64,000 nucleotides of DNA from Turnera subulata (Eukaryota; Streptophyta; Magnoliopsida; Malpighiales; Passifloraceae): NCBI GenBank assembly GCA_028386065.3, contig JAKUCV010006120.1, forward strand, positions 1-64,000, read 5' to 3'. Below are positions 28,481 through 64,000 of this stretch, in pieces. Under the pieces are notes generated by a model. The model made no database searches. It worked only from the letters and a program-made list of their open reading frames with translations, and was not told the DNA's origin. The position numbers and the translations under genes are program-made. Numbering within the stretch: position 1 is the stretch's first letter; each line of letters starts with the position of its first letter.

Positions 28481-29598
28481 TAATATTTCTTTTATAAAAA
28501 TAAAAGTTTACGATATTTATATTTGTAATAGCCCGGGTAAAATTTTTGATTTTTACCGGGACTGTAAAAGTCTTTTTACAGTGATTTACTGTTGAATTAA
28601 TCTTGAGTAATTAATTCAAAGTAAATCGGGAGTCGATTTTTCGAAACCGAGAGTTTTCCCGCGCTCGTGTTTTTTCCGTGGATTTTTCGGGCCTAAGTTG
28701 GTATTTTTCGGGTCCCCGGATTTTCGGAAAAAATCACACCGGAAAATAACTAAGGGAGTGTCAGTTATTTTCTGGTCCGGCCGGGACACGATTGCGTGAT
28801 TGAGTCACGCAGCCGCCCCTTTCCTATTTCACCTGTGATCCTCTTTATTTTCTTCTCCCGTGCCTCTGCCTTTTCCTTCTTTTTCCTGCACCACCTCTTC
28901 ATTTTCACTCTACCTACAACCACCTCACTGCAATTCCCGTAACCACCTACCTGCAACTAAACTGATTATAGCAAAAAAAAAAAAACAACAACAACCCAAA
29001 AACAACCCTGCACGCTGCCGTTTCCCCTCTCCCCTTCTTCTTCTTTTCTTTTTTTTTTCCTCTGCCGCCACCAGCGGAAACACCACCGCTACCAGCTCGT
29101 CACCACCACACGAGCCAACACCACCATCGCTCCTCCTCCTCTCTTGCGCGAGGTCGCGCCGCCAGAAGCTTCCCTCTGTCTCCTCCCGTCGCGCTCCTCT
29201 ACCCGACAACCGACGAGCCGCCGATCTGCTACAACCGACGAACGCCATCAGCCGACGCCGACTCCTCCCATCGACTGCTCTGTCGCCTCGCCACCGTCGT
29301 CCCGCCGTTTTGCTGCTCGCCGTTGCGTCGTCGCCGTCACAGACCCGGAACAAGGGTGAGTGACCCGTCTTTACAACCGGGTTACGGCTTTGGGTCGGGT
29401 TGACCCGAGTAGTGAGAGGTGGATCTTGGGCTGGGCGCTGGGCTTGGGCTAGGCGGGCCTGTGCAACGGGCCTGCTGCCTTGGCTGGGCCTTGCGCCTGG
29501 ATCCTTGGTTGGGCTGGTTGTGGTATGGGGCTGGGCTTGACTGTTTGGCCCAGTCCGTTTAAAAAAAAAATAAAAAATAATAATAATAATAAAACTGG

Positions 29599-29633
<35 letters not shown>

Positions 29634-30197
29634 AACAAATAAATATATATGTAATATGGATTGGATATTTTCTGGAAAAAATGAGTACATGGAGTATGTG
29701 GTTTATTTTGTGAAAATAAAAAAAAAGGTAATCATCATGTTTTATTATTTTCAAAAACTAAGGTAGTTAAAATAAGAATTATAACCTTTACAAATTACTA
29801 AATAATGACTGCATTAGAAAATAATAAATATACTATAAATATTTTGGGAGTATAAGAATTCGCTATATTTTCAAGGAATTACGTTATAGTAGCTATATTT
29901 TTGGAGAAGTATAATTATTTTATATAGATAATTTTGGAAATATAAATTTAGATACGTATCTTTACAAAATATTTATAATGATTATAAATTTTGGAAAATG
30001 ATAAATAACTTCATAAAAATATTTTGGAAAGAATTAAAGTATTAAATACCGAGGTAATATTCGGATATACGTACGGAATAATATTTTCGATAAAAGATGA
30101 TAATAAAGGATATGAGCTGGGATGGGTTATTTCGCAGTATTGGCATCATGACATACTCTTATGTGCATCTTATGTGAGCATGTTGTTTTCTATATAG

Positions 30198-30273
30198 GTT
30201 ATGATATCGGGCAGTTTCCCGAGGAGCCGGCTTTGGACCGGTCATTATTTACAGAGTTGAGCAATCGGCCAAG
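30198..30273 (+). other. 76-nt exon-like block in LTR B1
   Basis: Preceded by TCTATATAG and followed by GTGAGGATG. The open frame reads YDIGQFPEEPALDRS and then ELSNRP. Confidence 0.45.
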
Positions 30274-30997
30274 GTGAGGATGTATAAGCCTTGATATGTA
30301 CCTGTAATACCTTGTGTGTTTGTTTTTAGATTAAACTGTTGTTATGGTTATTGTCGTTGTTGTTGGTTTGTGATATCGGTTCTGTGAACATTGTGTTGTG
30401 ATTGACGTTGACCTGTTAATTGTAAATGTTTGGTGTTAAGATATGTTGACGGTTTAGTCTGTGGGATAACCTTTTGTAATAGTAAGTTGAACAACTTGTG
30501 AAATTGAATATTGGAAATTGTGATGGTATATATATTATTGTTGGATATTTGATGATACGGATTTGTTGATGTAGTTTCTGTTTGTGATTCTTGATATTGC
30601 TCTGCTTGATTGAACTGCCATGTTGACTGTTAATGGTTTCTTAGATACTGTGTTGCGTTTGATGTTGGATTGTGAATGATTGATGCTATGAAACTATTGA
30701 TGGATTGGTCTGTCGTATAATTTGAGTTAATAGGAAGTTGAGTAATTGTTTGACTGATTTGGATATTGTGTTTGATGTCGATAGACTGTGTTGTGACTAG
30801 TTTGTCGGAATAAACTGTGACATGGATAATTGGGAAAAAAGAAATGGAAATTGGAAGTTGATTTGAGATTTGGTTTTTGGATGATGATGACATAATTATC
30901 ACGTGGTAAGTAGAGGTACGACCGGATGGTTTGAGACTGTTTTGTGGTGGCCATGATCTGGGTTACTTGTGATGGGCATGTTGATGCCGGTTTGATT

Positions 30998-31120
30998 GGG
31001 ATGTTGATCCCTGAGATTGTGATTGGGATGTTGATCCCTGAGATTGTGATTGGGATGTTGATCCCTGAGATTGTGACTGGGATGTTGACCCCTGAGATTT
31101 GATATTGGGATGTTGATCCC
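30998..31120 (+). repeat. Five-unit GGGATGTTGATCCC array
   Basis: Units of about 27 bp, each a perfect or near-perfect GGGAT-GTTG-ATCCC palindrome joined by TGAGATTGTGATT. The partner LTR has eleven units. Confidence 0.75.
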
Positions 31121-31356
31121 GGGTTCTTTTTGATCTGGCACCATAAACAGGTTGATAGCCTGGTACGACCTTAGCTTATCCGTAACGGGGTCAGAAAGAT
31201 AAAATTGGAATAATAATAAAATCCTTGGTACGTTGGGTCGAGTCCTTGAGTTTGGTCTGTTTTGTGCGGTATTGACTTTAGTATGGTTGTGAATAATGTC
31301 TGTATTTCTTCTTTAAAGTATTATGGTTGCCTGCATATCTCTGTTTATCCTTGGTT

Positions 31357-31405
31357 GGTGAGCACTTCGGACTCACCCCTCACCTGCGGGCTTTCATCCC
31401 GTAGG
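31357..31405 (+). repeat. Paired hairpins in LTR B1
   Basis: GTGAGCACTTCGGACTCAC, then a stem TGCGGG/CCCGTA with loop CTTTCAT, as in LTRs A, B2 and the third LTR. Confidence 0.55.
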
Positions 31406-31715
31406 ATGGGTTATTTGTGGTACAGGGTTGGTGCATTTCAGACAGGCTGCGGCGTTATCCCTTGGACAGGGCTCGGATCCATAGTTTGCATCTATGTCGC
31501 ATACAGTGTCTAATGAGTTGTTAAGTCTTCCGCTGTGCATTTTATTGATATTATTGGGCCAATGGGCCGGTTTTGTTATTTATGATGTTTATTATTTTGG
31601 GTTGTTGAGCCCGTGTTCCTGTTGTATACACTGTATGCTGGGCTTTGTCTGGTTGGGTTGTCACAGTTCCGCCATGTGTTTACTGTGTACGATAAATACG
31701 GGTCAGGGCGTTTCA

Positions 31716-31735
31716 TTTTGGTAGCGGAGCGGGCG
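31716..31735 (+). other. Primer-binding-like site of element B
   Basis: TTTTGGTAGCGGAGCGGGCG follows the 5' LTR directly. It resembles the usual TGGTATCAGAGC tRNA-Met site with changes. Element A has the same variant. Confidence 0.45.
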
Positions 31736-31993
31736 TTAGGTCTTGTTGGGAAGTCCTTGTGTGTTTGTTGTCCTTGTTTGCATAGTTCGCTCCATTTGTT
31801 TATTATTTTATATCATTTTAGTTAGTGCATTATGGATCCGGTCAAGGGACGCCAGCTGTCGAAGAACATACACATAAGAGGTAATGATGCCATAAATAAG
31901 CGAAAATATAAATATTATTAATATTGCAAATATTATCATTACAAACAGAAATATTACATTGATATTTTATATTTTATAAAAATAAAAATACAT

Positions 31994-32677
31994 TTAACGC
32001 CTTGGAACGACATTGACCCTGAAGCTGGTGGGGTCATTGTTGATGTTGACTTGGATGCTGTCGCTCCACGAGAACCACATGCCGCCCCTGCCGTCCTGAC
32101 CAGGAAGCTCGAACCAGTTTGCTTGAGGGAACCGGAGTGGGATGAGACCGTGATCGTCTTGCGGTTGCCACTGGGTCTCCGTCAGAAGAACCATGTTCGG
32201 TTTGTATTGGTTCTTCAGGTCCCTCAGGGTAAGCGAGAACTCCTGGGAACGCCTTGCAACTCCTCTGCAGTTCCACACCAGTAGTCGGGCCTTTGGCCAA
32301 GTTACGGGCAGACGAGTGACTCTGGGCATGCTCTGGGCTGTCATCGAGAGCTGGTAGTAGGTACCTTGCTCCAGGAAGTGGCAAGTGGACTCTAGGTTAA
32401 ACTCCTGAAGCCTTTCGGAGATGAAGAACATGATGGAGTTGGCCGATCCGTAGTAGGAGGTCCTCAGAGTGCCGCGGTCCTCTAGGAAGAACACCTCTTC
32501 CATTGGAGTGACGAAGAATCTCGAGGAGTAGAGTTCGTCGATGAAGACTAGACGAGGCATCCTGCTGAGCTCGTTCGGTAGCTCTTCAGCACGTTCGTTG
32601 ACCATGCTGTAGGCCAGATGATTCCTTCTGCCAAGATTGGCACCTTCGACGAAGAAGACTGATGAGGGAGCAGGCAT
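31994..32677 (-). CDS. Antisense ORF2 of element B, 227 aa, intact
   Basis: The frame extends upstream to an ATG at 32863, but the conserved start MPAPSSVFFVEG is at 32677, giving 227 aa, the same as in element C. It has the N-terminal region conserved in all copies, then WNCRG (135-139), TET (166-168) and GGMWFSWSD (198-206), the beginning of an EEP endonuclease-like fold. The later catalytic residues of that fold are missing, so a binding or regulatory role is more plausible than cleavage; this is inference. It runs opposite to element B's own transcription. TATAAAAG lies 108-115 bp upstream. The Trp that is a stop in element A (codon 201) is intact here. Confidence 0.7.
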   Translation of the reverse strand: MPAPSSVFFVEGANLGRRNHLAYSMVNERAEELPNELSRMPRLVFIDELYSSRFFVTPMEEVFFLEDRGTLRTSYYGSANSIMFFISERLQEFNLESTCHFLEQGTYYQLSMTAQSMPRVTRLPVTWPKARLLVWNCRGVARRSQEFSLTLRDLKNQYKPNMVLLTETQWQPQDDHGLIPLRFPQANWFELPGQDGRGGMWFSWSDSIQVNINNDPTSFRVNVVPRR

Positions 32678-32784
32678 CTTGTTTTGGACGTATGGGGTTT
32701 TGTTTTGCGATCGTTGTGTTTTATTTGCCTGGATGTTTTGTTTGCTTTTAAATGCTTTTGATGATTTACACATCACCGCTCCTT

Positions 32785-32792
32785 CTTTTATA
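32785..32792 (-). promoter_or_regulatory. TATA box for antisense ORF2 (element B)
   Basis: On minus: AGTATAAAAGAAGGAGCGG, the same box and context as in element A (2689-2696). Confidence 0.55.
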
Positions 32793-33486
32793 CTCTTATG
32801 GGGAGCGTGATTACCGTTTTTGATTTTCAAGATTTTGCTTTTTGAATTTTCCGTTGCTTTCATTTATTGCCTTGTTACTTTACGCGTTTTTCGGACTACA
32901 ACGCCAGAGATTTTCAGCCTCTTTCCTTCTTATGATTTTCTTTCGCTCTGGCTACTTTGTCTTTTCTTTCTATGGTTTTCTATATTTTTCTTGCATCTTT
33001 TATCACATGCATTCGTGACCGTTGAGGCTAGACTGATGGGACCACATCTCGAGTAGAGCGCATGTGCGACAAGCTCACAGCTGTTTGGACATCGTGGAGA
33101 GATACGAGACTCGACAGACGTTTTTGGCTCATGCGGAATTTGTGGACAAGTGGGTATCGTTTCTTTCGAGGGACACAGGACGCTCTCGTAATCGTCACCG
33201 TTAGCTGCGTACGTTACGTTTCTCGGGATCGAGGATGCTTAGGACCGATTTGGGTGTCAATCATGAAAACGTGTTTTTGTATTAATTACCTTATGTTTTG
33301 ATTTTATTAAACGGGTTTTGTTTTTAATTTTTTTATATTTGATTTTATTTTTTTATAGTTGATTTTTATTTTGCTTTGAGATGTTTTATCTTTCTATTTA
33401 AAGAGAGATTTCATAACACAAGAAATTTTGATTTAAAAAGGAAATTTATTTATTTTATAATAGTTTTACATTGGAGAAGAAGTACT

Positions 33487-33864
33487 CTATTGAGATACAT
33501 GCTTCTCTAAGTCTTTTACAAGCTTGTGTACGTTCTTCATGTGAGGGAAGAGCTCCGCACACGCCAGTTCGATTTGCGCCACCGCCGAGCTGATCTTCTT
33601 CAGTGAGACGTTCAACTGCGTCAGCGTCTGCTGTGGGGTGCTGCTTTCAGCAGTAGCCTTGCCTTTCCTATCCTCAGCTTCTTTGGGAGCACGCTTCTTC
33701 TGGCATCTTCGAGAGACCACCATGTGTTCTTTCAGGTCGACGATGTTCGTCTTGAAGCGTTTCTTCGGAGGTTCATCATCAGAGCTTGTCGGGAAGGCAG
33801 TGCTACCAATGTAGCTGTTGTTCTCGAAGTCAGAGGTTGTTCTTGATCTCAGTGGAGAGTCCAT
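33487..33864 (-). CDS. Antisense ORF1 of element B, 125 aa, intact
   Basis: It is the same length as ORF1 of element A and similar along its whole length. It starts MDSPLRSRTTSDFENNSYIG and has the basic PPKKRFKTN cluster and a C-terminal helix-like part ending KLVKDLEKHVSQ. The second basic stretch has changed (RRCQKKRAPKE here), keeping its charge. The function is unknown. ORF1 lies upstream of ORF2 on the same strand, about 0.8 kb apart, and each has its own TATA box, so they look like two small genes rather than one transcript. Confidence 0.65.
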   Translation of the reverse strand: MDSPLRSRTTSDFENNSYIGSTAFPTSSDDEPPKKRFKTNIVDLKEHMVVSRRCQKKRAPKEAEDRKGKATAESSTPQQTLTQLNVSLKKISSAVAQIELACAELFPHMKNVHKLVKDLEKHVSQ

Positions 33865-33898
33865 GACTATGTGTGAGTATGCCAGTCATGAGGTTTGG

Positions 33899-33906
33899 TT
33901 TTTATA
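33899..33906 (-). promoter_or_regulatory. TATA box for antisense ORF1 (element B)
   Basis: On minus, CTCTATAAAAACC about 35-42 bp upstream of the ATG at 33864. Confidence 0.5.
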
Positions 33907-35745
33907 GAGGACGAGATGTCGCTTAAGGGTATAAGCGGTATCTCGGGTTGAGGTTGGACACCTGGCAGAGTGTGCCAGAAGCTTATCGTGGTAGGACCCA
34001 CGGATAAGACGGAATTTCGGGGACAAAATTCTTTTTAAGGTGGGTAGACTGTAACAACCCGGGTAAAATTTTTGATTTTTACCGGGGCTGTAAAAGTCTT
34101 TTTACCGTGATTTACTGTTGAATTAATCTTGGGTAATTAATTCAAAGTAAATCGGGACTCGTTTTTTCGAAACCGAGAGTTTTCCCGCGCTTGTAATTTT
34201 TCCGTGGATTTTTCGGGCCTAAGTTGGTATTTTTCGGGTCCCCGGATTTTCGGAAAAAAATCACACCGGAAAATAACTAAGGGGGTGTCAGTTATTTTCT
34301 GGTCCGGTCGGGACACGACTGCGTGATTGAGTCACGCAGCCGCTCCTTTCCTATTTCACCTGTGATCCTCTTTATCTTCTTCTCCCGTGACTCTGCCTTT
34401 TCCTTCTTTTTCCTGCACCACCTCTTCATTTTCACTTTACCTACAACAACCTCACTGCAATTCCCGTAACCACCTACCTGCAACTAAACTGATTATAGCA
34501 AAAAAAAACAACAACAACAACCCAAAAACAACCCTGCACGCTGCCGTTTCCCCTCTCCCCTTCTTCTTCTTTTCTTTTTTTTTTTCCTCTGCCGCCATCA
34601 CCACCTTGAGCCACCAGCAGAAACACCACCGCTACCAGCTCGTCACCACCACACGAGCCAACACCACCATCGCTCCTCCTCCTCTCTCGCGCGAGGTCGC
34701 GCCGCCAGAAGCTTCCCTCTGTCTCCTCCCGTCGCGCTCCTCTACCCGACAACACACCCGACGAGCCGCCGATCTGCTACAACCGACGAACGCCATCAGC
34801 CGACGCCGACTCCTCCCATTGACTGCTCTGTCGCCTCGCCACCGTCGTCCCGCCGTTTTGCTGCTCGCCGTTGCGTCGTCGCCGTCACAGACCCGGAACA
34901 AGGGTGAGTGACCCGTCTTTACAACCGGGTTACGGCTTTGGGTCGGGTTCACCCGAGTAGTGAGAGGTGGATCTTGGGTTGGGCGCTGGGCTTGGGCTAG
35001 GCGGGCCTGTGCAACGGGCCTGCTGCCTTGGCTGGGCCTTGCGCCTGGATCCTTGGTTGGGCTGGTTGTGGTATGGGGCTGGGCTTGACTGTTTGGCCCA
35101 GTCCGTTTTAAAAAAAATAAAAAATAATAATAATAATAAAACTGGGAATATATATATATATATATATATGTATATATGATAACAAATAAATATATATGTA
35201 ATATGGATTGGATATTTTCTGGGAAAAATGAGTACATGGAGTATGTGGTTTATTTTGTGAAAATAAAAAAAAAAGGTAATCATCATGTTTTATTATTTTC
35301 AAAAACTAAGGTAGTTAAAATAAGAATTATAACCTTTACAAATTACTAAATAATGACTGCATTAGAAAATAATAAATATACTATAAATATTTTGGGAGTA
35401 TAAGAATTCGCTATATTTTCAAGGAATTACGTTATAGTAGCTATATTTTTGGAGAAGTATAATTATTTTATTTAAATAATTTTGGAAATATAAATGTAGA
35501 TATGTATCTTTACAAAATATTTATAATGATTATAAATTTTGGAAAATGATAAATAACTTCATAAAAATATTTTGGAAAGAATTAAAGTATTAAATACTGA
35601 GGTAATATTCGGATATACGTACGGAATAATATTTTCGATAAAAGATGATAATAAAGGATATGAGCCGGGATGGGTTATTTCGCAGTATTGGCATCATGAC
35701 ATACTTTTATGTGCATCTTATGTGAGCATGTTGTTTTCTATATAG

Positions 35746-35821
35746 GTTATGATATCGGGCAGTTTCCCGAGGAGCCGGCTTTGGACCGGTCATTATTTAC
35801 AGAGTTGAGCAATCGGCCAAG
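35746..35821 (+). other. 76-nt exon-like block in LTR B2
   Basis: Same borders and sequence as 30198-30273. Confidence 0.45.
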
Positions 35822-36544
35822 GTGAGGATGTATAAGCCTTGATATGTGCCTGTAATACCATGTGTGTTTGTTCTTAGATTAAATTGTTGTTATGGTTATT
35901 GTTGTTGTTGTTGGTTTGTGATATCGGTTCTGTGAACATTGTGTTGTGATTGACGTTGACCTGTTAATTGTGAATGTTTGGTGTTAAGATATGTTGACGG
36001 TTTAATCTGTGGGATAACCTTTGGTAATAGTAAGTTGAACAACCTGTGAAATTGAATATTGGAAATTGTGATGGTATATATATTATTGTTGGATATTTGA
36101 TGATACGGATTTATTGATGTAGTTTCTGTTTGTGATTCTTGATATTGCTCTGCTTGATTGAACTGCCATGTTGACTGTTAATGGTTTCTTAGATACTGTG
36201 CTGCGTTTGATGTTGGATTGTGAATGATTGATGCTATGAAACTATTGATGGATTGGTCTGTCGTATAATTTGAGTTAATAGGAAGTTGAGTAATTGTTTG
36301 ACTGATTTGGATATTGTGTTTGATGTCGATAGACTGTGTTGTGACTAGTTTGTCAGAATAAACTGTGACATGGATAATTGGGAAAAAGGAAATGGAAATT
36401 GGAAGTTGATTTGAGATTTGGTTTTTGGATGATGATGACATAATTATCACGTGGTAAGTAGAGGTACGACCGGATGGTTTGAGACTGTTTTGTGGTGGCC
36501 ATGATCTGGGTTACTTGTGATGGGCATGTTGATGCCGATTTGAT

Positions 36545-36827
36545 TGGGATGTTGATCCCTGAGATTGTGATTGGGATGTTGATCCCGAATTTGTGATTGG
36601 GATGTTGATCCCTGAGATTATGATTGGGATGTTGATCCCAGATTTGTGATTGGGATGTTGATCCCTGAGATTATGATTGGGATGTTGATCCCGGATTTGT
36701 GATTGGGATGTTGATCCCTGAGATTGTGATTGGGATGTTGATCCCTGAGATTGTGATTGGGATGTTGATCCCTGAGATTGTGACTGGGATGTTGATCCCT
36801 GAGATTTGATATTGGGATGTTGATCCC
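36545..36827 (+). repeat. Eleven-unit GGGATGTTGATCCC array
   Basis: All eleven palindromes are intact. The linkers alternate between TGAGATT and GAATTT, AGATTT or GGATTT types in the first half, which suggests expansion of a two-unit block. Confidence 0.75.
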
Positions 36828-37063
36828 GGGTTCTTTTTGATCTGGCACCATAAACAGGTTGATAGCCTGGCACGACCTTAGCTTATCCGTACCGGGGTCG
36901 GAAAGATAAAATTGGAATAATAATAAAATCCTTGGTACGTTGGGTCGAGTCCTTGAGTTTGGTCTGTTTTGTACGGTATTGACTTTGGTATGGTTGTGAA
37001 TAATGTCTGTATTTCTTCTTTGAAGTATTATGGTTGCCTGCATATCTCTGTTTATCCTTGGTT

Positions 37064-37112
37064 GGTGAGCACTTCGGACTCACCCCTCACCTGCGGGCTT
37101 TCATCCCGTAGG
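37064..37112 (+). repeat. Paired hairpins in LTR B2
   Basis: Identical to those at 31357-31405. Confidence 0.55.
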
Positions 37113-37747
37113 ATGGGTTATTTGTGGTACAGGGTTGGTGCATTTCAGACAGGCTGCGGCGTTATCCCTTGGACAGGGCTCGGATCCATAGTTTGCATCT
37201 ATGTCGCATACAGTGTCTAGTGAGTTGTTAAGTCTTCCGCTGTGCATTTTATTGATATTATTAGGCCATTGGGCCGGTTTTGTTATTTATGATGTTTATT
37301 ATTTTGGGCTGTTGAGCCCGTGTTCCTGTTGTATACACTGTATGCTGGGCTTTGTCTGGTTGGGTTGTCACAGTTCCGGCACGTGTTTACTGTGTACGGT
37401 AAATACGGGTCGGGGCGTTTCACCGGGTAAAATTTTTTATTTTTACCGGGACTGTAAAAGTCTTTTTGCCGTGATTTACTGTTGAATTAATCTTGGGTAA
37501 TTAATTCAAGGTAAATCGGGAGTCATTTTTCGAAACCGAGAGTTTTCCCGCGCTCGTGATTTTTCCGTGGATTTTTCGGGCCTAAGTTGGTATTTTTCGG
37601 GTTTCGAAATTTCTCGGAAAATCACACCGGAAAATAACCAAGGGGGTATCAGTTATTTTCTGGTCCGGACTGGACTCGCTCCAGATTATTACATTATTGA
37701 GCTCACATGTCTAATAGTAAACAAAAAACAGTTTAAAAGCAGAATCG

Positions 37748-41300: not shown

Positions 41301-41511
41301 TGTTATAAAACTAGTGTTTAAATCAGTGATGAGTAACAGAAAGAATGAAGAGGAAGAGGTAGAAGAATGGCAGTGAGGGAAGAAGAGACGTTCCCATGGT
41401 ATTTTTCATTCATAGGCCAATATATAGAGATACAATATATTGAAGATAGAGGTAATGGGTTGGTGGAACTTTGTCCACTAATGACATCCAAAAAATCACG
41501 TTTTTATAACA
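41301..41511 (-). repeat. 3' LTR of element C
   Basis: TGTTATAAAACTAGTG to CGTTTTTATAACA. The ends are themselves inverted (TGTTATAAAA / TTTTATAACA). Confidence 0.85.
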
Positions 41512-41519
41512 CTCCCCCT

Positions 41520-43900
41520 TGGATGTCATTGTGTGTTGTGCAGAATACGCTTTAGGGAAAAACTGCCTCATTAAAAACCTTACCAAGAAAAACCCAGTGG
41601 GATAAAAACTTGGTGAAGGGAAAAAGAGTGCAGTGCGTATTCTACTCCCCCTCATTTTCGCCTCTTTTGATTTCTTGATGTCGTTGCACGCCAATCGTCT
41701 TTGTCAACTCCTGGTGATGTGTGTTTTGTCCGATCACTTTTGATACATCATTACTTTACTGGACAGTGTATGCGGCATCATCTACATAGTTTGTTGTTGG
41801 AGCATCTGCCTTGCTATCATCTTGAGCATGTAGCATCTTCGAATGTAGTCGGGCACGGTCTCGACTAGCTCTGTGTATAATGATAATTTCTGCATCATTG
41901 GTAGTGTTTTGTGCTTCACATGATACTTCTGGTATCTGCAAGACAAACTATATTTTCTTTGGGTTGTAGTGTCATATCTTATTGTGTCCCAAAGATAAAA
42001 GCATAGCCATATCTCGCCAATAGGCTTATGGCAGAAGCTACGGGCTTCGTGTTACAAGCACTTTAATATGGTACTCCGGGACCAATAAGTGCAAATTCGG
42101 TTTAAACCATATAAAATCGATTCAGCTTGGTATTATATATTCCCGGGAATTAGTGGATCCATAGAAAATAGGCTGTAACCGCATCCATTGGATGCACTTC
42201 TAATATATTGCCAGACTTATCATATAATTGCATCCACCACAGGGGAGTATATCTCCTCATAATTAGTACCGGGTCGTTGGGTAAAAGTTGTGCTACAAAC
42301 CGTGCTTTTATATCTCACTTTATTTAATTTTCCTCATTTTTTTTCCGCACAAAATACCCATTTGTAATCGACCGGTTTTACACCATCAGGTGTTGGGACT
42401 ATCGGCCCAAAATTTCTTGCTTCATATGCGAGTCCAACACAGCCTTTAATCATGTTTCTCTATTTTGGACAATCATATTGCGCCTATATTCGCCAATGTA
42501 GGTTCATGATCCTCATTTTATTTAGCGCTATAAATAAAACAAGTATTCCATCGACGGTTATTTCCACGTCGGTTCCATCTTGTTCCTGACACTGTAATTG
42601 AGATCTCATCATTTTTCATTTATTTCAGGTACCTGAGTTACTTCTGGAACTTTATCAATTGTGTCATGGACCTCTTCTGGAGGATTTTTCTCTTCTTGAG
42701 GACATTTAATTCGGACCTCTACTAGAGGCTTTATTTCCTCATTGGGGCCATCTTATATTTTTGCTCCTTTTTCTCTATCGAGAATTTTTGTTTTCTTATG
42801 GAACCGAGCATACTCTACGCTTCTGGCGTAATTTAGATTCATTTGCATATTTTGGAGAACAGGAGCATTTGCAGCTGGTACTTGGTCACATTTTTCAAAT
42901 AAATATGTCTGGCAAATGACTTACTAATCTTTTGCAAATGAATCATCTTTTGAACTTCAGGTTCATACTAATTTATTCGAGGATCAAAACTAGATATTGA
43001 TAAATCATTTCAATAATCTCTTGATCCAGCTGCTTATTTTCTCCCCTTGATGTTGGGTAAAAACATCAATTAATAAGCAAATCTTACAATAAATAAATCT
43101 CTAATCTCCTGTCATAGGTTTCAATTACTTTTGTAATTTATGGGACCCAACGTAGATTCTCAATCTTCTTTAAAGGACCAATTTCACAATCCTGTGGTGG
43201 AGCATTATATATTGAATAACCGATGGTCCGAAGATGGGAGATACTAAGTATGTGACCATAAATCAATTAAATGGGGAGATCTTATCATGTTGGCTTGATG
43301 CACTCAAGTGTTGCTGCATATAAAATACCATTTTCTCAAACAATAATATTTCATCAATGGTCTTGTAATCAATTGTCAATATGGCCCAGAGCTCTTTGGG
43401 TTTATTTCCAATGATATACATTCTCCATTGAAGAAACATACCAGCATTATCTAGACATATAGTCTAATAACATAAGTAGGGACATATACCGCAAGTGGCT
43501 TAATTAGTGCACACAATGCCAACTTGCGTCACATAATAGACCATCTAGTCGATGCATCGTAAAAATTACCTAGATGGTTAACACCGCGGATTTATCAGTC
43601 CGCGTTTATGTCCCTGAACTATTCTCAAACTTGCTGGTGATACTAGGCCATTCTCATCTTAGGAAGGCCGTATAATAACTTTCGCAGCAAACAAACTCAT
43701 AGAAATTCGTTGATTGTAAAACTTCTGGTTTTTCAATAATGATCCAATAAATTTCGTGCATCATTATTAATCCGGGATGGCCCATCTGGTCATGCCAAGC
43801 AATAAATCCATGACCCAACTTCAAGTTGGTGCCAGCTTCAGGCTGCGCAAGCTGTGTATCTAAACACTTAAAATTGCTGGCTCTAGGCTAGTGCATTCCA
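41520..43900 (-). pseudogene. Decayed copia pol in element C
   Basis: On minus, recognisable scraps in order: a GAG-pre-integrase-like piece (GFIAWHDQMGHPGLIMM, about 43750-43800); then, after a degraded integrase, VKPVDYKWVFCA (about 42350-42390); then FTQRPGTNYEEIYSPVVDA (about 42215-42300), the start of the copia reverse transcriptase. The frame is full of stops and shifts and no long ORF survives. The order matches Ty1/copia, with integrase before reverse transcriptase. Confidence 0.65.
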
Positions 43901-44138
43901 GCTTCTGGCTGGATATATTAAGTTTCAATTACTCAACTACTAGCTTCAGGCTGCAATACATGTGTCAATATTAGGCTTATTCCTGCCACTCATGTCGGAA
44001 AAGATCAGAATTATTGAGCAGACTTTTCCAAAAGCAACTTTGGAGTTTTGTGAAACCAAAAAATCTTCAGGATCTTTTTGGAGATAAGTGAAAGAGTCCA
44101 CATATGAAATACTGACACCTGGCTGTCTAAGCTCAGGC

Positions 44139-44146
44139 TATAAGAA
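44139..44146 (+). promoter_or_regulatory. TATA-like box for antisense ORF2 (element C)
   Basis: GGCTATAAGAAGGGG, 68 bp before the ATG. Element D has GGCTATAAAATGAGG at the same place. Confidence 0.5.
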
Positions 44147-44206
44147 GGGGAGGCGGTTGAGACAGGAAGATGCAGAAAACTCAGAAAAATCAACAAGACA
44201 AGAAAA

Positions 44207-44890
44207 ATGCCTTCCCCAGCTACTGTTTTCTTTGTTGAGGGTGCCTCTCTAGGAAGAAGAAATAGGTTAGCTTATAGCATGGTAAATGAGCAGCAAGAGG
44301 AACTACCGAATGATCTGGCGAGAATTCCTCGTTTAGTGTTTGTAGATGAGCTATACTCGTCTAGGTTCTTTGTGACTCCAATGGAAGAAACTTTCTTCCT
44401 GGAGGACCAAGGCAATCTCAGGACAAATTTTTATGGCTCAGCTAACTCTATAATGTTTTTCATATCTGCTAGGATGCAGGAATTTCAGCTAGAGCCTTCA
44501 TGTCAAATTTTAAATCAAAGCAGTTATTATCAGGTTTCCATGATGGCTCGGAGCGTCCCAAGGGTGACTGGGTTACCACCTACATGGCCTAAGGTACGAC
44601 TTTTATTGTGGAATTGCAGGGGTATAGCAAGAAGGTCTCAAGACTTTGTGCGTACCTTAAGGGATCTGAAGAATCAGTACAAGCCTAACATGGTACTGAT
44701 TACCGAGACTTTGTGGCAAGCAGGAGAGAATCATGGTGTGATTCCACTTCGTTTTCCTCCAACGAATCGGTTTGAGATACCTGGAGAAAACAACATGGGT
44801 GGTATGTGGTTCTCCTGGAACGACAGTGTTAGGGTCAACATTAATGGTGAGGCTCAGAGTTTCAGGGTTAATGTTGAACCCAACAGATAG
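44207..44890 (+). CDS. Antisense ORF2 of element C, 227 aa, intact
   Basis: An uninterrupted 227-codon ORF on the strand opposite to the copia element around it. It aligns end to end, without gaps visible by eye, with the ORF2 proteins of the unrelated gypsy-type elements A and B: MPSPATVFFVEGASLGRRNR at the start, VFVDELYSSRFFVTPMEE near residue 45, GSANSIMFFIS near 78, WNCRG at 135-139, TET at 166-168 and GGMWFSWND at 198-206. The second half resembles the first third of a LINE EEP endonuclease domain; the first half is unrecognised. Third codon positions differ widely from A and B (A/T-ending here, C-ending there) while residues are kept, suggesting purifying selection. It starts 61 bp after the TATA-like box. 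The role is unknown. Confidence 0.75.
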   Translation: MPSPATVFFVEGASLGRRNRLAYSMVNEQQEELPNDLARIPRLVFVDELYSSRFFVTPMEETFFLEDQGNLRTNFYGSANSIMFFISARMQEFQLEPSCQILNQSSYYQVSMMARSVPRVTGLPPTWPKVRLLLWNCRGIARRSQDFVRTLRDLKNQYKPNMVLITETLWQAGENHGVIPLRFPPTNRFEIPGENNMGGMWFSWNDSVRVNINGEAQSFRVNVEPNR

Positions 44891-46429
44891 ATTACTGTTT
44901 AAACATATGTATGAGAACCATTCTTCTTTGAATGTTCTTCAGTTATGGATCCGTTTATGCAATAATAATATGCATGTTTGCTTTGAGCCTTTTCCATTTA
45001 TTATCTCATTTACGCCCACAGACATAAATAATTATATTGTCTTATTCACTTCAGGGAATAGATCAGAGTCAATTCATCGTGAACCATAATAATTCATTTT
45101 ATTACTAGGGGTGTCTGTATCAATATGCTCTTCCAGAGCGTAAATATACGATCTTCTTGATCATATTTAAAACATGCGTTCTTCAGGAACATATTACTAG
45201 GGGTGCCTGTACTCTTCAAGAGTATATGTTCTTCTAGAGCGTAAATATACAATCTTCTTGATCATATTTAAAACATGCGTTCTTCAGGAACATATTCGAA
45301 TTTATGCTCTTCTGGAGCGTGTTAATCTTTTTCTCATTTCGAGATATCATAATATGTTATATTGACATCCAACACATATAATTCTCCCCCTGTGGATGTC
45401 AATTTTGCATTGTCTTCGAGACTAATGCTTGAGGCATTATTCTAGAAACAATTATAAAGTACTGAAAAGTAAATAAAATAAAATTGCAATGCATAATAAT
45501 ATAAACTGAACATAAAATAAATTGAATATAAAATGAATTTCTCCTTTAGGGTAAGCAAGTATAATATCCACCTTCTGGTGGTCATATAATTTCCATCTTC
45601 TAGGGGTAATAGTTTTTATTTTCGATTTTCCTTTGAAGGATCTTCAGGATCTTTTGAAAGGTAAAACCTCCAGTCTTCGTTGTATTTTCTTTTATTGAGT
45701 CTGCTGAACTCTTATATTTAGTCTTCCAGACTATTATCATATAAATGCATTTTAGCATTTAGTGCCCATGATAAATTTCTTCCGAAAATTTTGCAGGCCT
45801 CAAATTCAAGTAACATAATCAAAAGACTTAATTAAAATAAATAAACATGGACCTTTTATTAATTAGCCCAATGAAGAATTAAATAACCAAAAAATTAAAA
45901 GCAATGGGCCTTACATAAATTAGCCCAATTAAAATAAATGACTAAAAATTAAATGCAATGGGTCTTTTATAAATTAGCCCAATAAAAATTAAATTATCGC
46001 AAAATAAATGCGATGGGCCTTATACGAGCCCAATAAAATCGTAAAGAAATTAAAACGAGAAATTAATGAGCCCAATTGAAATGTAAAGAACATAATATTA
46101 AAATGTAATGGGCCTAATATGAGCCCAAACTTAATATAAATGAAAAACAATAAAATAAATACAATAGCCTTCCGGGCTTGCCAGGAAAAATCCCGAGACA
46201 CTGAATTTCGGCCAAACACTTCCGGGTTTGCAGGGAAAAACCCAAGGTATCGAATTCCGGCCAAACACTTCTAGGCTTGTCGGGAAAATCCCGAGATGCG
46301 AAATTTCGGTAATATAAATTCTTCCTTTTTCTTTTTCTTTCTCACCTTTCTTTTCTCTTTTTTTTTTCTTTTTTATTTTTTTCTCTCTTTTTCACTTCCT
46401 TTTCCCTTTTTTTTTTTTAATTTCGGCTG

Positions 46430-46990
46430 GGCTTTGAATAGTACAGCCTAGCTCGTAACAGTGACAGCCCAAGGTGTAGAACAGTGCAGCCCAAGCCCAG
46501 GCGCCATCAGCCTATCTAAGCCCGCGGGTCAGACCCGACCCGGACCACGACCCATCCGGGTCTTCAACCCGTGGCGGGTGCTCACCTGCAGCGGTGAGGG
46601 CGCGAGGCGATGAGCGACGACGGTTGCTCTGGACGGCGACGCGAGCACGACGCGAGGCTGGGACGGCATGGAACAGCGGCGGCGCGGCGTCGCTGGGCAG
46701 GAACAGGCGCGGGAAGGGGCGGATCCGACGGAACAGCCGTCTGGTCTTTGGCCGTAGACGGCGCGTCGGCGACGGAATCGGATGGGAGAAGGCGGCGTCG
46801 AGGTCGCGACAGTGCGGGGAGTCTGAAGGTGGCGGCGGTGAGGCGAGCTACGGCATGGAACGATGACGGGTGAACAATAACGTGGAGGGTGACATGTTTC
46901 TGGTTTTTTTTTTTTGGGGTTTTCTTGCACTGGGTTTTCTTCTTCCTTCGGTTGTCCAGAAAAAAAAACGAGGCTCGGGGTAGGGACGAT
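46430..46990 (-). other. GC-rich leader module of element C
   Basis: On minus, directly after the primer-site region. It is a GC-rich stretch with a 133-codon frame (46930-46529), then CTGCAG/GTGAGCACC (donor-like, 46580-46585), CCGGGTCGGGTCTGACCCG, a GGGCTTGGGCTG part and an A run. The gypsy-type LTRs A, B and G have the same order of parts. Confidence 0.45.
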
Positions 46991-47003
46991 GGTGCTGATA
47001 ACG
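46987..47003 (-). other. Primer-binding-like site of element C
   Basis: On minus CGTTATCAGCACCATCG, adjoining the LTR. It is of the TTATCAGCAC type seen in plant copia elements. Confidence 0.4.
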
Positions 47004-47214
47004 TGTTATAAAACTAGTGTTTATTTCAGTGATGAGTAACAGAAAGAATGAAGAGAAAGAGGTAGAAGAATGGCAGTGAGGGAAGAAGAGACGTTCCCAT
47101 GTTATTTTTCATTCATAGGCCAATATATAGAGATACAATATATTGAAGATAGAGGTAATGGGTTGGTGGAACTTTGTCCCCTAATGACATCCAAAAAATC
47201 ACGTTTTTATAACA
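47004..47214 (-). repeat. 5' LTR of element C
   Basis: 211 bp, with about five substitutions versus the LTR at 41301. TSD TAAAG follows. Confidence 0.85.
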
Positions 47215-59394: not shown

Positions 59395-59601
59395 TGTTAT
59401 AAATAATATTATTGATGTAGAAGAGATTGAAGAAGAAATGGAGAGGAAGAGAGGAGCAGAAAAATGGCTGGGAAATACTGAGCTCGGGAAATATGGCAGC
59501 ACCATTTTCTTATTCTTTAATCATATATATATACAATGATTGGTATGTATTTGGTATGTATACAATGACATACATACATATACAATACATGTTTTATAAC
59601 A
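59395..59601 (-). repeat. 3' LTR of element D
   Basis: TGTTATAAATAATATT to CATGTTTTATAACA, 207 bp. Its ends match those of C but its middle differs (TACATACATATACAATACATG). Confidence 0.7.
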
Positions 59602-59649
59602 CTCCCCCTTGGATGTCATTGTGTTGTTGGGTAGAATACGCTTTGGGGA

Positions 59650-62150
59650 TACTGCCTCATTAAAAACCTTACCAAGAAAAACCCAGTGGGATAAAAAACT
59701 TGGTGAAGGGAAAAAGAGTGCAGTACGTATTCTACTCCCCCTCATTTTAGCCTCCATTGATTGCTTGATATTATTGCATGCCAATCGTCCTTGTCAGCTT
59801 TTGGTGACGTGTGTTTTGTCTGATCACTTTGATACATCATTGCTTACAGGGTTGACAGCATTATCTTCATAATTTTGCCGTTGGAGCGTCTATCTTGTCA
59901 TCTTGCTTTTGTAGTCCAATGATTTTGTAATATCATGTGTAAAGTTGTAGTTGATGTCCGTCTCAGCTTTATGTGGACTTGAATAAGGGATCTACATCTG
60001 CAAAAATCAACTTTACTCTCTTTCGGGTTTACAGGATTACACATTTGTTATTTCCCGAAGATAAGAGCAAATACATATCTTGCCAATAGGCTTAAATCAA
60101 AAGCTTCAGGCTTTTCATTACAAGCAACACATATTGCACTAAGACGGGGTACTTCAGGACCAGTCTAATAGCACGGTATTTGGAAGCCTCTTCTGGAGTT
60201 TCAATCACTAACCATATAGATATCAACATAAAATTTATTCATACTCAAAAATAATTTAAACTCGATTTAATCTTTGTAATTTCCCGGGAATTAGTTGCTT
60301 CAGGCAACTCGGATCCTTCAGGGATCTTCATGCATATTTCACAACTTATGGATCCATAGTAGGCTGTAAAAACATTCATTAGATGCATTTCTAATTCTTT
60401 TCATATAATGCCAGACTTATCAAAATAATTGCATCCACCACAGGGGAGTATATCTTCTCATAATTAATACCTGGTCATTTGGGTAAAACTTTGTGCCATG
60501 AACCGTGCTTTATATCTCATATTCTTTCCCACACAAATTCCCATTTTATGATCAGTTGAATTTTACACCTTCTAGTGTATGGACTGTAGGTCCGGAAATT
60601 TCTCGCTTCGAGCAAGTCTAACACAGCCTTTAATCATGTTTCTCTATTTTGGCCAATCATACTGCGCCTACATTTGTCAAATGTAGGTTCATGATCCTCA
60701 TTTTAATATTTAGCGCTATAAATTAAAATTGTATTCCGTCGACGGTTATTTCTTGTCGGTTCCATCTTATTCCTGACACTGTAATTGAGATCTCATCATT
60801 CTCATTTATTTCAGGTACCTGAGTTACTTCATGAAATTTATCAACTGTGTCAGAGAATCAACCTCTTCTGGAGGACTTTTAATTCAATCCTCTACTGGAG
60901 GTCTTATTTTCTCACTGGGGCCATCTTATCACTTTTGCTCCTTTTTCTCTATCGAGAATTTCTTTGCTTTTGGAACCGAGTATAATCTATATGGATTCAT
61001 TTGCATACTTATATTGTTCTTCAGGATCATCAAAACAGGAGCATTTGCAGCTGGTATATAGTCACATATTTCAAATAAATATGTCTGGCAAATGACTTAC
61101 TAATCTTCTGCAAATGAATTATTTCTTAGAACTTCAGGTTCATACTAATATTCGAGGATCAAAAATTAAATATTGATAAGTCATTTCAATAATTTCTTGA
61201 TCCAGCTGCTTATTTTCTCTCCCCCTGATGTTGGGTAAAACATCAACTAATAAGCAAATATTGCTATAAATGAATCTCCAACCCCCTGTCATAGATTTCA
61301 ATTATCTTTATAATATATGGAGATACATACCCAAAGTAGATTCCCAATCTTCTTAAGGGACCAATTTCACAACCCTGTGGTGGAGCATTATATAACTCAA
61401 GGTCCGAAGATGAGAGATACTATGTATCTGACCATTAATCAATTAAATGGGGGGGTTCTTATAACATCATGTTGGCTTGATGCACAGTGTTGTTGCATAT
61501 AAAATATCAATTTCTCAAGCAATAATATTTCATCAACAGTCGTGCAATCAATTGTCAATGTTCCCCCAAATTTGTTTAGGTTTATTTCCAATGATATACA
61601 GTCTCTTATTGATGAAATATCCCAGCATTATCTAAACATATAGTCTAGTAACATAAGTAGGGACATGCGCCCGCAAGTGGCATAATAAGTGCGCACTGAT
61701 GCCAACTTTCGTCACACAATAAACCATCTAGTCGATGCATCGTAAAAATTACCTAGATGGTTAACACCGCGGATTGATCAGTCCGCGTTCATGTCCCTGA
61801 ATTATTCTTATACTTGCTGGTGATGCTAGGCCATTCACATCTTAGGAAGGCCGTAAGATAACTTTCGTAGCAAACAAACTCATAGAAATTTATTGATTGT
61901 AAAACTTCTGGTTTTTCAATGAATGATCCAATAAATTTCGTGCATCATTATTGACCCGGGATGGCCCATCCGGTCATGCCAAGCAATAAATCCATGAACC
62001 AACTTCAAGTTGGTGCCAGCTTCAGGCTGCGCAAGCTGTGTATCTAAACACTTAAAATTGCTAGCTCCAGGCTAGTGCATTCCAGCTTCTGACTGGATAT
62101 GTTAAGTTTCAATTGCTCAACTGTTAGCTTCAGGCTGCAATACATGTGTC
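59650..62150 (-). pseudogene. Decayed copia pol in element D
   Basis: Collinear with 41560-43990 in C, with the same GAG-pre-integrase-like and reverse transcriptase-like scraps on minus and many stops. Confidence 0.55.
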
Positions 62151-62342
62151 AATATTGGGTTTATTCATGCCACTCATGTCGAAAAAGATCGGAATTATTG
62201 GACAATAATTAATGCAGTGGCAGACATTTCCAAAAGTAAATCCTCGAGGATCGTAAAGCTTTGGAATTTTCTAAATAATAATATAATCCACCGAAAAATC
62301 TTCTGGATCTTTTCGGGGACACCTGGCTATCTATGCTCAGGC

Positions 62343-62350
62343 TATAAAAT
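62343..62350 (+). promoter_or_regulatory. TATA box for antisense ORF2 (element D)
   Basis: GGCTATAAAATGAGG, 92 bp upstream of the ATG at 62435. Confidence 0.5.
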
Positions 62351-62434
62351 GAGGAAGGATTACATGGGGAGATACAGGAAAACTCATAGATATAGAAAAA
62401 TTCATTAAAGCAGAAAAACTCAACCAAGACAAAA

Positions 62435-62795
62435 ATGCCTTCCCCAGCTACTGTTTTCTTTGTTGAGGGTGCCTCACTAGGCAGAAGAAATAGATTGGCC
62501 TATAGCATGGTAAATGAACAACAAGAGGAATTGCCTAATGATCTGGCGAGAATTCCTCGTTTAGTGTTTGTAGATGAACTATACTCGTCTAGGTTCTTTG
62601 TGACTCCAATGGAAGAGACTTTCAGCAGGAGAGAATCATGGTGTGATTCCACTTCGTTTTCCTCCAACGAATCGGTTTGAAATACCTGGAGAAAACAACA
62701 GGGGTGGTATGTGGTTCTCCTGGAACGACAGTGTTAGGGTCAACATTAATGGTGAGGCTCAGAGTTTTAGGGTTAATGTTGAACCCAACAGATAG
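62435..62795 (+). pseudogene. Antisense ORF2 of element D, internally deleted
   Basis: Begins MPSPATVFFVEGASLGRRNR and follows element C almost exactly to residue 63. 323 bp equivalent to 44396-44718 of C are then missing. Because 323 is not a multiple of three, the frame shifts and ends at 62680. The remainder (GGMWFSWND part) is still readable in another frame to a TAG at 62795. The EEP-like WNCRG and TET motifs are lost. Confidence 0.75.
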
Positions 62796-64000
62796 ATTAT
62801 TTGTTTAAACATATGTATCAGAATCATTCTTCTGTGAATGTTCTCCAGTCATGTATCCGTTTATGGAATAATAATATGCAAGTTTACTTTGAGCCTTTTC
62901 CGTTTATTATCTCATTTACGCCCACAGGCACAAATAATTATACAGTCTTATTCGCTTCAGGGAATAAATCTGAGTCAATTTATTTGGGATCCATAATAAT
63001 TCATTTTATTACTGGGGATGTCTGTACTCACGTAAATACACGATCTTCTAGATCATATTTAAAACATGCGTTCTTCCGGAACATATGCGGATTTATGCTC
63101 TTCTGGAGCGTGTTAATCATTTTTCATTTCGAGACGTCATAATATGTTATATTGACATCCACACATATAATTCTCCCCCTGTGGATGTCAATTTTGCATT
63201 GTCTTCGAGACTAATGCTTTAGGCATTATTCTAAGAAACAATTATAAAGTACTGAAAAGTAAATAAAAATAAATTACAATGCGTAATAATTTAAACTAAA
63301 CATAAAAATAAATTGAATATAAAATAAATTGCTCCTTCAGGGTAAGCAAGTATAATATCCACCTTCTGGTGGTCATATAATTTCCATCTTCTGGTGGTAA
63401 TAGTGTGTATTTTAGATTTTTCTTTGAAGGATCTTCAGGATCTTTTGAACGGTAAGACTTCCAGTCTTCGTTTTATTTTTCTTTTCCCGAGTCTTCGGGA
63501 CTCTTACATTTATTCTTTCAGACTATTCTCATTTAAATGCATTTTCGCATTTAATGCCCATTATAAATTTCTTCCAGAAATTTTAAGAGCCTCAAATTCA
63601 AATAACATAATATAATAAGTAAATGCTTAATTAAAATAAATAAGCAAGGGGCCTATAATAAATTACCCCAAGTAAAAATAAATGACAGAAAATTAAATGA
63701 TGGGCCTAGTATGAGCCCATATTAAGCATAAAATTAAAGGCAAGGTAATTAAATACAATGGGCCCTTTTATAGCCCAATTAAAAATAAATGCCTGAAAAT
63801 TAAATGCGATGGGCCTTTTTATTAATTAGCCCAATAAAAATTAAATTGCTAAAAAAAAAAAAAAATGCAATGGGCCCATAGCGAACCCACTAAAAATTAA
63901 ATTGCAGCAAAATAAAAGCGATGGGCATTATACAAGCCCAATTCAAAATGTAAAGAAATAGGCGGCTTAGCCGGCCATTATGGGCCTTTCATGAGCCCAA

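What the first reader, a model, noticed from the sequence alone, without database searches (positions are those of the whole stretch)
44207..44890. One antisense protein family inside both copia-type and gypsy-type LTR elements
The ORFs at 2806-3489 (A), 32677-31994 (B), 44207-44890 (C) and 62435-62795 (D) encode one family of 227 residues. A and B have gypsy-type LTRs of about 3 kb; C and D are copia-type with LTRs of about 210 bp. In every case the ORF is antisense to the host element. Between A and C most residues are kept while third positions differ at a large share of codons (GTC/GTT, TTC/TTT, GAA/GAG, GAC/GAT). Two copies are fully open. Extra and antisense ORFs are known in some plant Ty3/gypsy lineages, but I know of no family shared across the two superfamilies.
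Basis: partly seen in the sequence, partly recalled or inferred. Interest (0 to 1): 0.9.

Follow-up and report, generated by a model that had tools for sequence, protein, structure and literature searches.

The report
Shared antisense gene in unrelated retrotransposons
Two unrelated kinds of plant jumping gene in this stretch carry the same small protein gene, written backwards relative to the element and kept intact by natural selection although the elements' own copying genes are missing or broken, which suggests that the protein does something useful for such elements.

Summary
One 227-codon gene (here p2) lies antisense in four elements: A and B (Ty3/gypsy-type ends, LTRs about 3 kb) and C and D (degenerate Ty1/copia). 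It aligns without an indel in A, B and C; B and C are open, A has one internal stop, D a 323-bp deletion. Changes sit in third positions: dN/dS 0.15 for A/B; 14 synonymous and 1 nonsynonymous differences for C/D; 73% residue identity between the groups with saturated synonymous sites. C/D flanks show no codon phase and 55 frame-breaking indels. A and B hold no detectable gag or pol, so selection acted there in already pol-less elements; for C and D, which keep only broken copia RT, this is likely but less certain. A/B carry a second selected antisense gene (p1, 125 aa). A TATA box precedes all six ORF starts. The C-terminal half of p2 weakly resembles the start of a LINE-type endonuclease domain. 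No relative turned up in a protein collection that holds plants. Antisense accessory ORFs are known in plant gypsy elements; my searches showed none shared with copia. Best reading: an accessory gene module used by unrelated LTR elements. Function is inferred; the host genome could not be searched.

The parts
44207..44890 (+). p2 gene, copy C: 227 aa, fully open, antisense to its copia-type element
   Evidence: translation; selection; orientation
41301..47214 (-). Copia-type element C: LTRs 41301-41511 and 47004-47214 (97.6%), TSD TAAAG, PPT AAGGGGGAG beside 41511, decayed RVT_2 at about 42230-42400; p2 lies upstream of it in the element's own direction
31994..32677 (-). p2 gene, copy B: 227 aa, fully open (the frame stays open up to 32863, but the first 50 residues of that extension have no match in C)
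28524..37422 (+). Gypsy-type element B: LTRs 28524-31715 and 34050-37422 (98.0% by substitutions), PBS at about 31719, PPT at about 34037; interior without gag or pol match
33487..33864 (-). p1 gene, copy B: 125 aa, basic, second antisense gene
2806..3489 (+). p2 gene, copy A: 227 codons with one internal TAG
1570..1947 (+). p1 gene, copy A: 125 aa, open
   Evidence: A/B dN/dS 0.158
1..6652 (-). Gypsy-type element A: 3' LTR from 1384 leftwards (cut by the window start), interior 1385-3756, 5' LTR 3757-6652; no gag or pol match inside
62435..62795 (+). p2 gene, copy D: codons 1-63 and 172-227 kept, 323 bp deleted between
59592..64000 (-). Element D: degenerate relative of C, cut by the window end; no full LTR seen
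44139..44144 (+). TATAAG box 68 bp before the p2 start in C (D: 92 bp, A: 117, B: 115; p1 in A and B: 42)
   Evidence: 6 of 6 upstream regions of 150 bp against 15.8% of random 150-bp stretches
6653..10945 (+). Gypsy element F: gag, protease, RT and RNase H open pieces, chromodomain-like tail (by eye), same PPT/LTR start as A/B; no p1 or p2 found in what is present (its 5' part is interrupted by A)

Best explanation
p2 is a real protein gene, probably with its own promoter, carried in antisense by two unrelated lineages of non-autonomous LTR retrotransposons. It is kept by selection acting on the element lineages, not on single genomic copies. SHOWN: one indel-free 227-codon family in gypsy-type and copia-type elements, purifying selection inside both lineages, no detectable gag or pol in A/B and only broken copia RT in C/D, and a TATA box before each start. 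INFERRED: the antisense unit is transcribed by RNA polymerase II independently of the LTR, and the protein acts in trans, most likely in the nucleus, by blocking host silencing of the element's DNA or RNA or by helping the borrowed particle or cDNA. The pol-less element would thus supply an accessory function while borrowing gag and pol from a relative such as F. The gene reached the two superfamilies by exchange between elements or by two captures from one source; saturated synonymous sites make this old. Its C-terminal half may derive from the first part of a LINE-type endonuclease domain, turned into a non-catalytic part. Rough odds: selected accessory gene 0.85; anti-silencing or regulatory role 0.4; replication or integration help 0.25.
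For: A/B: dS 0.354, dN 0.054, Fisher p=4.6e-14. C/D over 119 codons: 14 synonymous against 1 nonsynonymous, p=3.8e-9. B to C: 219 differences give 62 residue changes and no stop; with the same changes placed at random the mean is 126 (minimum 109) with 9.4 stops, and none of 5000 trials is stop-free. C/D flanks: 348 differences over 2301 sites in 21 ungapped blocks without phase bias, and 55 frame-breaking indels in 20 bins of 200 bp, against one inside the ORF, the D deletion. A and B share a collinear interior of about 2.35 kb with no Pfam gag or pol in the three element-strand frames of each, so their common ancestor most likely already lacked it. p1 is selected too (dN/dS 0.158, p=1.1e-10). 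TATAAR precedes 6 of 6 starts. Published precedent for an antisense accessory gene with its own promoter and a nuclear product: maize Grande gene23 (as reviewed in PMC7264820, parts 1-2 of 3 read).
Against: No expression data and no assay of function. No relative in 2 of 2 protein searches, and no confirmed locus in prokaryote or viral contigs. Only four copies in one 64-kb window were seen, and the host genome could not be searched. For C/D the age of D is unknown, and whether their breaks in pol are shared was not tested, so that selection acted on an already dead element is less certain there. A trans-acting protein in a non-autonomous element needs some cis preference or family-level selection, which is not shown. 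One opposite-strand frame of the same DNA also gives a low ratio (0.25 for A/B, 0.15-0.18 between groups), but it holds 10 to 12 stops per copy. TATA matches are weak evidence, and the six sites are only three independent ones. Structure models are poor (mean pLDDT 36.3 and 42.5) and the fold search was uninformative.
Confidence: 0.62

Rival explanations
1. A host gene (or gene family) was captured twice, once by a gypsy-type and once by a copia-type element; the conservation is mostly a memory of selection on the host gene before capture.
For: Alignable DNA between A/B and C/D is confined to the ORF (44204-44874 against 32680-32010), and GC3 differs between the groups (0.69 against 0.43), as two captures could give. 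Gene capture by LTR elements is well documented (reviewed in PMC7264820).
Against: Selection is seen after capture: A/B and C/D differences arose inside one element lineage each, yet 14 of 15 are synonymous in C/D and dN/dS is 0.15 in A/B. The gene is antisense with its own TATA box, whereas transduced genes are usually in sense (PMC7264820).
Confidence: 0.2
2. p2 belongs to another mobile element (for example a LINE-derived non-autonomous insertion) that nested in both LTR families.
For: C-terminal half of B matches PF03372 (E=6.1e-4; 0.0034 for the whole protein), and motifs such as WNCRG, TET and GG-W resemble plant LINE endonucleases (recalled, not from a call).
Against: The PF03372 match is below the curated cut-off (20.0 against 24.5 bits) and absent for C and for the A piece. 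No shared flank outside the ORF was found, although flanks as old as this could have become unalignable. The ORF has a common start and stop and has been inherited within each element family.
Confidence: 0.1
3. The antisense transcript, not the protein, is the functional product (dsRNA, siRNA or interference with sense RNA).
For: Antisense RNAs of LTR elements can regulate them (discussed in PMC7264820, parts 1-2, and PMC12786077, passages).
Against: Differences respect codons: 45/30/142 by position for A-C, 1/1/13 for C/D. Of the five other frames, four give ratios above 1 and one, on the opposite strand, a low ratio (0.15-0.25) but 10-12 stops per copy.
Confidence: 0.03
4. Selection acts at host level: p2 is a domesticated gene that happens to lie in elements.
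For: Two of four copies are open.
Against: A has a stop and D a large deletion; where LTR pairs can be compared (A, B, C) they are 95-98% identical. This is as expected if copies decay after insertion and selection works only through transposing lineages.
Confidence: 0.05

Closest known systems
Antisense accessory ORFs (aORF-3R) of plant Ty3/gypsy elements: maize Grande gene23, rice RIRE2, Silene Retand, PvRetro13 (PMC7264820, PMC11963269)
   Same: Extra gene antisense to the element, conserved in most copies, own promoter reported for Grande, nuclear product suspected.
   Different: Those lie between pol and the 3' LTR; in Retand, 57 of 104 antisense ORFs carry a Transposase_28 domain (PMC11963269, passages). 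p2 and p1 show no such domain, A/B have no detectable pol, and in C the gene lies upstream of the RT of a copia element.
Tekay 5' aORF of sunflower, rice RIRE3/RIRE8 and Retrosat-2 (PMC11728184, passages)
   Same: Accessory protein in a chromovirus lineage that A, B and F may belong to; conserved in 500 of 523 sunflower copies; predicted nuclear, as p1's basic make-up would allow.
   Different: Located upstream of gag-pol in elements that have gag-pol. No sequences were at hand to compare with p1 or p2.
ORF3 types shared between LTR and Penelope-like elements of bdelloid rotifers (PMC5408684, abstract and section 3.4)
   Same: The same accessory protein type in unrelated retroelement classes, read there as gene sharing between elements.
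   Different: Animal elements; proteins with known domains (DEDDy exonuclease, GDSL esterase). Here the gene is antisense, in plant gypsy-type and copia-type elements.
Env-like ORFs of plant LTR elements (mentioned in PMC9289625 and PMC7264820)
   Same: An accessory ORF type reported in lineages of both copia and gypsy.
   Different: In sense, named for similarity to retroviral env, often with membrane segments; no sequence comparison was made here.
VANC anti-silencing proteins of plant MULEs (passages and cited titles in PMC13317346 and PMC12859917)
   Same: Model for a transposon-encoded protein that frees its own family from host silencing.
   Different: DNA transposons with transposase; no sequence comparison was made here.
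LARD-type non-autonomous LTR elements
   Same: Long LTRs and a short interior without gag or pol, as in A and B.
   Different: LARD interiors are regarded as non-coding (recalled); A/B code for two selected antisense proteins.

Membership tests
Plant antisense accessory ORF (aORF-3R) | ORF antisense to the host LTR element | tested here: met
   PBS/PPT/LTR ends
Plant antisense accessory ORF (aORF-3R) | Conserved as protein among copies | tested here: met
   dN/dS, codon-position and random-placement tests on the four copies in the window
Plant antisense accessory ORF (aORF-3R) | Lies between pol and the 3' LTR | tested here: not met
   A/B show no pol; in C p2 lies upstream of the RT remains
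Plant antisense accessory ORF (aORF-3R) | Transcribed from its own promoter | tested here: inconclusive
   TATAAR before 6 of 6 starts; no RNA data
Retand aORF with Transposase_28 (PF04195) | PF04195 match | tested here: not met
   Pfam scans of p2 (B, C whole; halves of A up to its stop, B and C) and p1 (A only): none
Exo_endo_phos / LINE endonuclease domain (PF03372) | Profile match above the curated cut-off | tested here: not met
   B half 20.0 bits against 24.5; C and A piece none
Exo_endo_phos / LINE endonuclease domain (PF03372) | Complete domain with the later catalytic residues | tested here: not met
   Best match covers profile positions 2-91 of 225, then the protein ends; which residues are catalytic is recalled
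Ty1/copia (element C) | Copia-type reverse transcriptase (RVT_2) in element sense | tested here: met
   E=1.3e-8, 35.2 bits, cut-off 31.6, a 57-residue piece
Ty1/copia (element D) | RVT_2 and LTRs | tested here: inconclusive
   RVT_2 13.3 bits, gag_pre-integrs 15.0 bits, both below cut-off; no LTR in the window; DNA homology to C
Ty3/gypsy (elements A, B) | gag-pol of gypsy type | tested here: not met
   No Pfam match in interior element frames; filed by LTR start, PPT and similarity to gypsy element F
Non-autonomous long-LTR element (LARD-like) for A, B | Long LTRs, PBS and PPT, interior without gag or pol | tested here: met
   (the left LTR of A is cut by the window start)
Captured (transduced) host gene | Parent gene outside elements | not testable with these tools

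The most novel reading that the evidence does not exclude
p2 is a mobile accessory gene that circulates among otherwise unrelated LTR-retrotransposon superfamilies in a plant and, alone or with p1, forms the only working coding content of pol-less elements. Such elements borrow the replication machinery but bring their own antisense-coded protein against host control, comparable to a satellite virus that carries its own suppressor.
Probability: 0.3. Interest if true: 0.87.

Novelty: new variant of a known kind. Interest (0 to 1): 0.7.

Why it matters
The function and origin of most antisense accessory ORFs in plant LTR retrotransposons are described as unknown in a 2020 review (PMC7264820), and a 2025 Retand survey calls the role of their main domain unknown (PMC11963269, passages). 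A family present in both superfamilies, and under selection in elements without gag and pol, separates the accessory function from the replication genes and makes it directly testable. It would also mean that annotation which requires gag-pol or sense ORFs misses selected genes. A published screen of 25,565 RT-containing consensuses (4,811 copia, 20,288 gypsy) from 121 plant assemblies found 15 uncommon domains, all in gypsy-type elements (PMC9289625, passages), so a selected extra gene in a copia lineage is unexpected.

Tried and rejected
Dual coding with sense gag/pol: rejected. In B and C every other frame over the ORF holds 3 to 17 stops (in A, 2 to 12), against only the terminal stop in the p2 frame of B and C, and element-strand frames of A and B interiors give no Pfam match. 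One opposite-strand frame also has a low dN/dS (0.15-0.25), as a frame that shares most silent positions can, but it holds 10 to 12 stops.

Chance ORF: rejected by the substitution pattern.

Whole-protein relatives: 2 of 2 database searches empty (E<=0.01 for C; E<=10 for the B+C alignment); the method needs shared 5-residue words. As a control, the neighbouring gypsy protease ORF gave 177 proteins, of which 120 were listed; those listed with an organism name are plants, so plants are held. Listed identities were 37% at most, so the host lineage may be poorly covered.

Solved structures: no match for C or for the B+C alignment; single chance-like hits at E=1.3 for the halves of B and C.

AlphaFold2 with 2 sequences: poor for the whole protein and the C-terminal half; Foldseek of the latter had no hit at E<=0.001 among 198 at E<=10, so no fold is claimed.

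p1 in C/D: nothing beyond chance-level hits by tblastn and profile search, the best at 61503-61640 with E=0.17. Rfam and tRNA scans of the window: none.

Literature: 8 answered searches listed no antisense family shared by gypsy and copia; apart from the papers named here I saw only listings. The library lacks most subscription papers. The 2011 survey of extra ORFs (Steinbauerova) and the Grande gene23 paper were not read; they are known only through the reviews.

Full report
OBSERVATION. Copies A (2806-3489 +), B (31994-32677 -) and C (44207-44890 +) are each 684 bp, and 227 codons align with no gap. B and C are open; A has one internal TAG. D keeps codons 1-63 (62435-62623) and 172-227 (62625-62792), with 323 bp missing between. 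Protein identity is 90% for A-B, 73% for A-C and B-C, and for C-D 100% over the first 63 codons and 98% over the last 56. DNA identity between A or B and C is only 68%, and alignable DNA between the groups is confined to the ORF.

THE HOST ELEMENTS. B is a plus-strand element with LTRs 28524-31715 and 34050-37422 (98.0% identical by substitutions), a PBS-like TGGTAGCGGAGCGGG after the 5' LTR, and a polypurine tract followed by TGTAACAACCCGGG. A is the same kind of element on the minus strand, its left LTR cut by the window start; the LTR parts that can be compared are 95.4% identical over 1097 sites. Their interiors are about 2.35 kb and collinear, and none of the 3 element-strand frames of either matches a gag or pol family, with stops read as X. 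The neighbouring element F (plus strand, about 6653-10945) has gag, protease, RT and RNase H pieces of gypsy type, a tail that looks like a chromodomain (recalled pattern), and the same PPT and LTR start as A/B. Profile search found no p1 or p2 in what is present of it. So A and B are best read as pol-less relatives of a gypsy family like F. C is a minus-strand element with LTRs 41301-41511 and 47004-47214 (97.6% identical), TSD TAAAG on both sides and PPT AAGGGGGAG. It retains a 57-residue copia-type RT fragment (RVT_2, E=1.3e-8) and gave no other gag or pol match in the element-strand frames scanned. D is homologous to C and shows the same PPT, but has no full LTR in the window and only sub-threshold RVT_2 (E=0.065) and gag_pre-integrs (E=0.021) signals. 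In all four cases p2 is antisense to the element. In C it lies upstream of the RT remains, unlike the antisense ORFs described in the review, which lie between pol and the 3' LTR (PMC7264820, parts 1-2 of 3 read).

SELECTION. For A/B, dS=0.354 and dN=0.054 (ratio 0.153), Fisher p=4.6e-14. For C/D over 119 shared codons there are 14 synonymous and 1 nonsynonymous differences (p=3.8e-9). For A-C and B-C the synonymous sites are saturated (pS 0.87 and 0.86) while pN is 0.15-0.16. If the 219 B-to-C changes are placed at random with the same base spectrum, 126 residues change on average (minimum 109) with 9.4 stops, against 62 and 0 observed; for B to A it is 50 against 22, for C to D 10.8 against 1. 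The flanks are the internal control. In C/D, 348 differences over 2301 sites in 21 ungapped blocks outside the ORF show no codon phase, and 20 bins of 200 bp hold 55 indels that are not multiples of three, while the ORF holds one, the D deletion (the bins across that deletion are left out of the 55, one bin includes the first 105 bp of the ORF, which has no indel, and two bins are only 62-68% identical, so their indels are placed less surely). Control against: one opposite-strand frame of the same DNA also gives ratios of 0.15-0.25, but has 10-12 stops in each copy. In A/B, nonsynonymous divergence (5%) is little more than the 3.3% expected from decay since insertion, if each copy has half of its LTR divergence (4.6% and 2.0%). 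The stricter phase of selection therefore lies before insertion, while the lineage was still moving. That is inference. As both interiors are collinear and without pol, the common ancestor of A and B was most likely already pol-less and still under selection for p2. For C/D the same is likely, because the copia remains show no codon phase since their split, but the age of D is unknown and I did not test whether breaks are shared.

A SECOND GENE. A (1570-1947 +) and B (33487-33864 -) carry another antisense ORF, p1: 125 aa, pI 9.5-10.1, with basic clusters, dN/dS 0.158, p=1.1e-10. In C or D there is nothing beyond chance-level hits (best E=0.17). The Pfam matches of the A copy are weak and below cut-off.

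EXPRESSION SIGNALS. TATAA[AG] occurs within 150 bp upstream of 6 of 6 ORF starts (p2 in A-D, p1 in A and B), against 15.8% of random stretches on a given strand. The six are three independent promoters. No RNA data were available.

WHAT THE PROTEIN IS. p2 has no relative in the searched protein collection, which does hold plant proteins, and none by sequence in the PDB. The C-terminal half of B matches the start of Exo_endo_phos (profile positions 2-91 of 225; E=6.1e-4, 20.0 bits, cut-off 24.5). C and the A piece do not match. WNCRG and TET fit the first two motifs of LINE-type endonucleases as I recall them, and the protein stops before the later catalytic residues. If the match is real, p2 is probably not a working nuclease. 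Structure prediction with two sequences failed (mean pLDDT 36.3 and 42.5) and the fold search gave nothing.

MECHANISM. I take p2 to be an accessory protein expressed from its own antisense promoter that helps non-autonomous elements, most likely by countering host silencing or otherwise in the nucleus. Shown: coding, selection, antisense position, absence or breakage of gag and pol. Inferred: transcription, nuclear action, benefit to the element. Precedents are Grande gene23 (own promoter, nuclear; reviewed in PMC7264820), Transposase_28 ORFs of Retand (57 of 104 antisense ORFs; PMC11963269, passages), the Tekay 5' aORF (500 of 523 sunflower copies; PMC11728184, passages) and VANC proteins of MULEs (passages and cited titles in PMC13317346 and PMC12859917). 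Sharing of accessory ORFs between unrelated retroelement classes is published for bdelloid rotifers (PMC5408684, abstract and section 3.4).

NOVELTY. Antisense accessory ORFs are known, so this is a new variant. New, as far as 8 literature searches show, are the sharing of an antisense family across Ty3/gypsy and Ty1/copia and the selection within pol-less elements. Env-like sense ORFs are reported in both superfamilies (PMC9289625, passage), so an accessory ORF type in both is not new in itself. The screen in that paper found uncommon domains only in gypsy-type consensuses, but it started from RT and known domains, and so would have missed A, B and p2.

LIMITS. Four copies in one window. The host genome could not be searched because the tool was unreachable in 10 of 10 tries, so copy number, host gene parents and orthologues are unknown. 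The host is probably a flowering plant, judging from ubiquitin/NEDD8-like and other gene pieces that I recognise by eye.

Noticed in passing
1570-1947 (+) and 33487-33864 (-): Second selected antisense gene p1 (125 aa, basic, probable coiled coil by eye) near the 3' LTR of A and B, with a TATA box 42 bp before its start.
   Followed up: partly
6653-11000: Gypsy element F with open gag, protease, RT and RNase H pieces and the same PPT/LTR start as A/B; a likely helper type for them. A appears to be inserted just upstream of its gag.
   Followed up: partly
37423-40357: A further A/B-type LTR directly abuts the 3' LTR of B, without its first bases; the 5 bases beside the two ends of B differ (ATATT against CCGGG), which suggests recombination.
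   Followed up: no
36515-36832: Tandemly repeated stretch inside the 3' LTR of B (self-matches at steps of about 26 bp).
   Followed up: no
48734-49500: Ubiquitin followed by a NEDD8/RUB-like unit, a host gene recognised by eye from its translation.
   Followed up: no
50890-51315 and 55585-55875: Pieces that look like an NPF-type transporter and an arabinogalactan-like peptide (by eye).
   Followed up: no
18622-23029: Duplicated segment (18622-20547 and 21640-23029, pieces 77-88% identical), perhaps a host membrane-protein gene and its copy.
   Followed up: no
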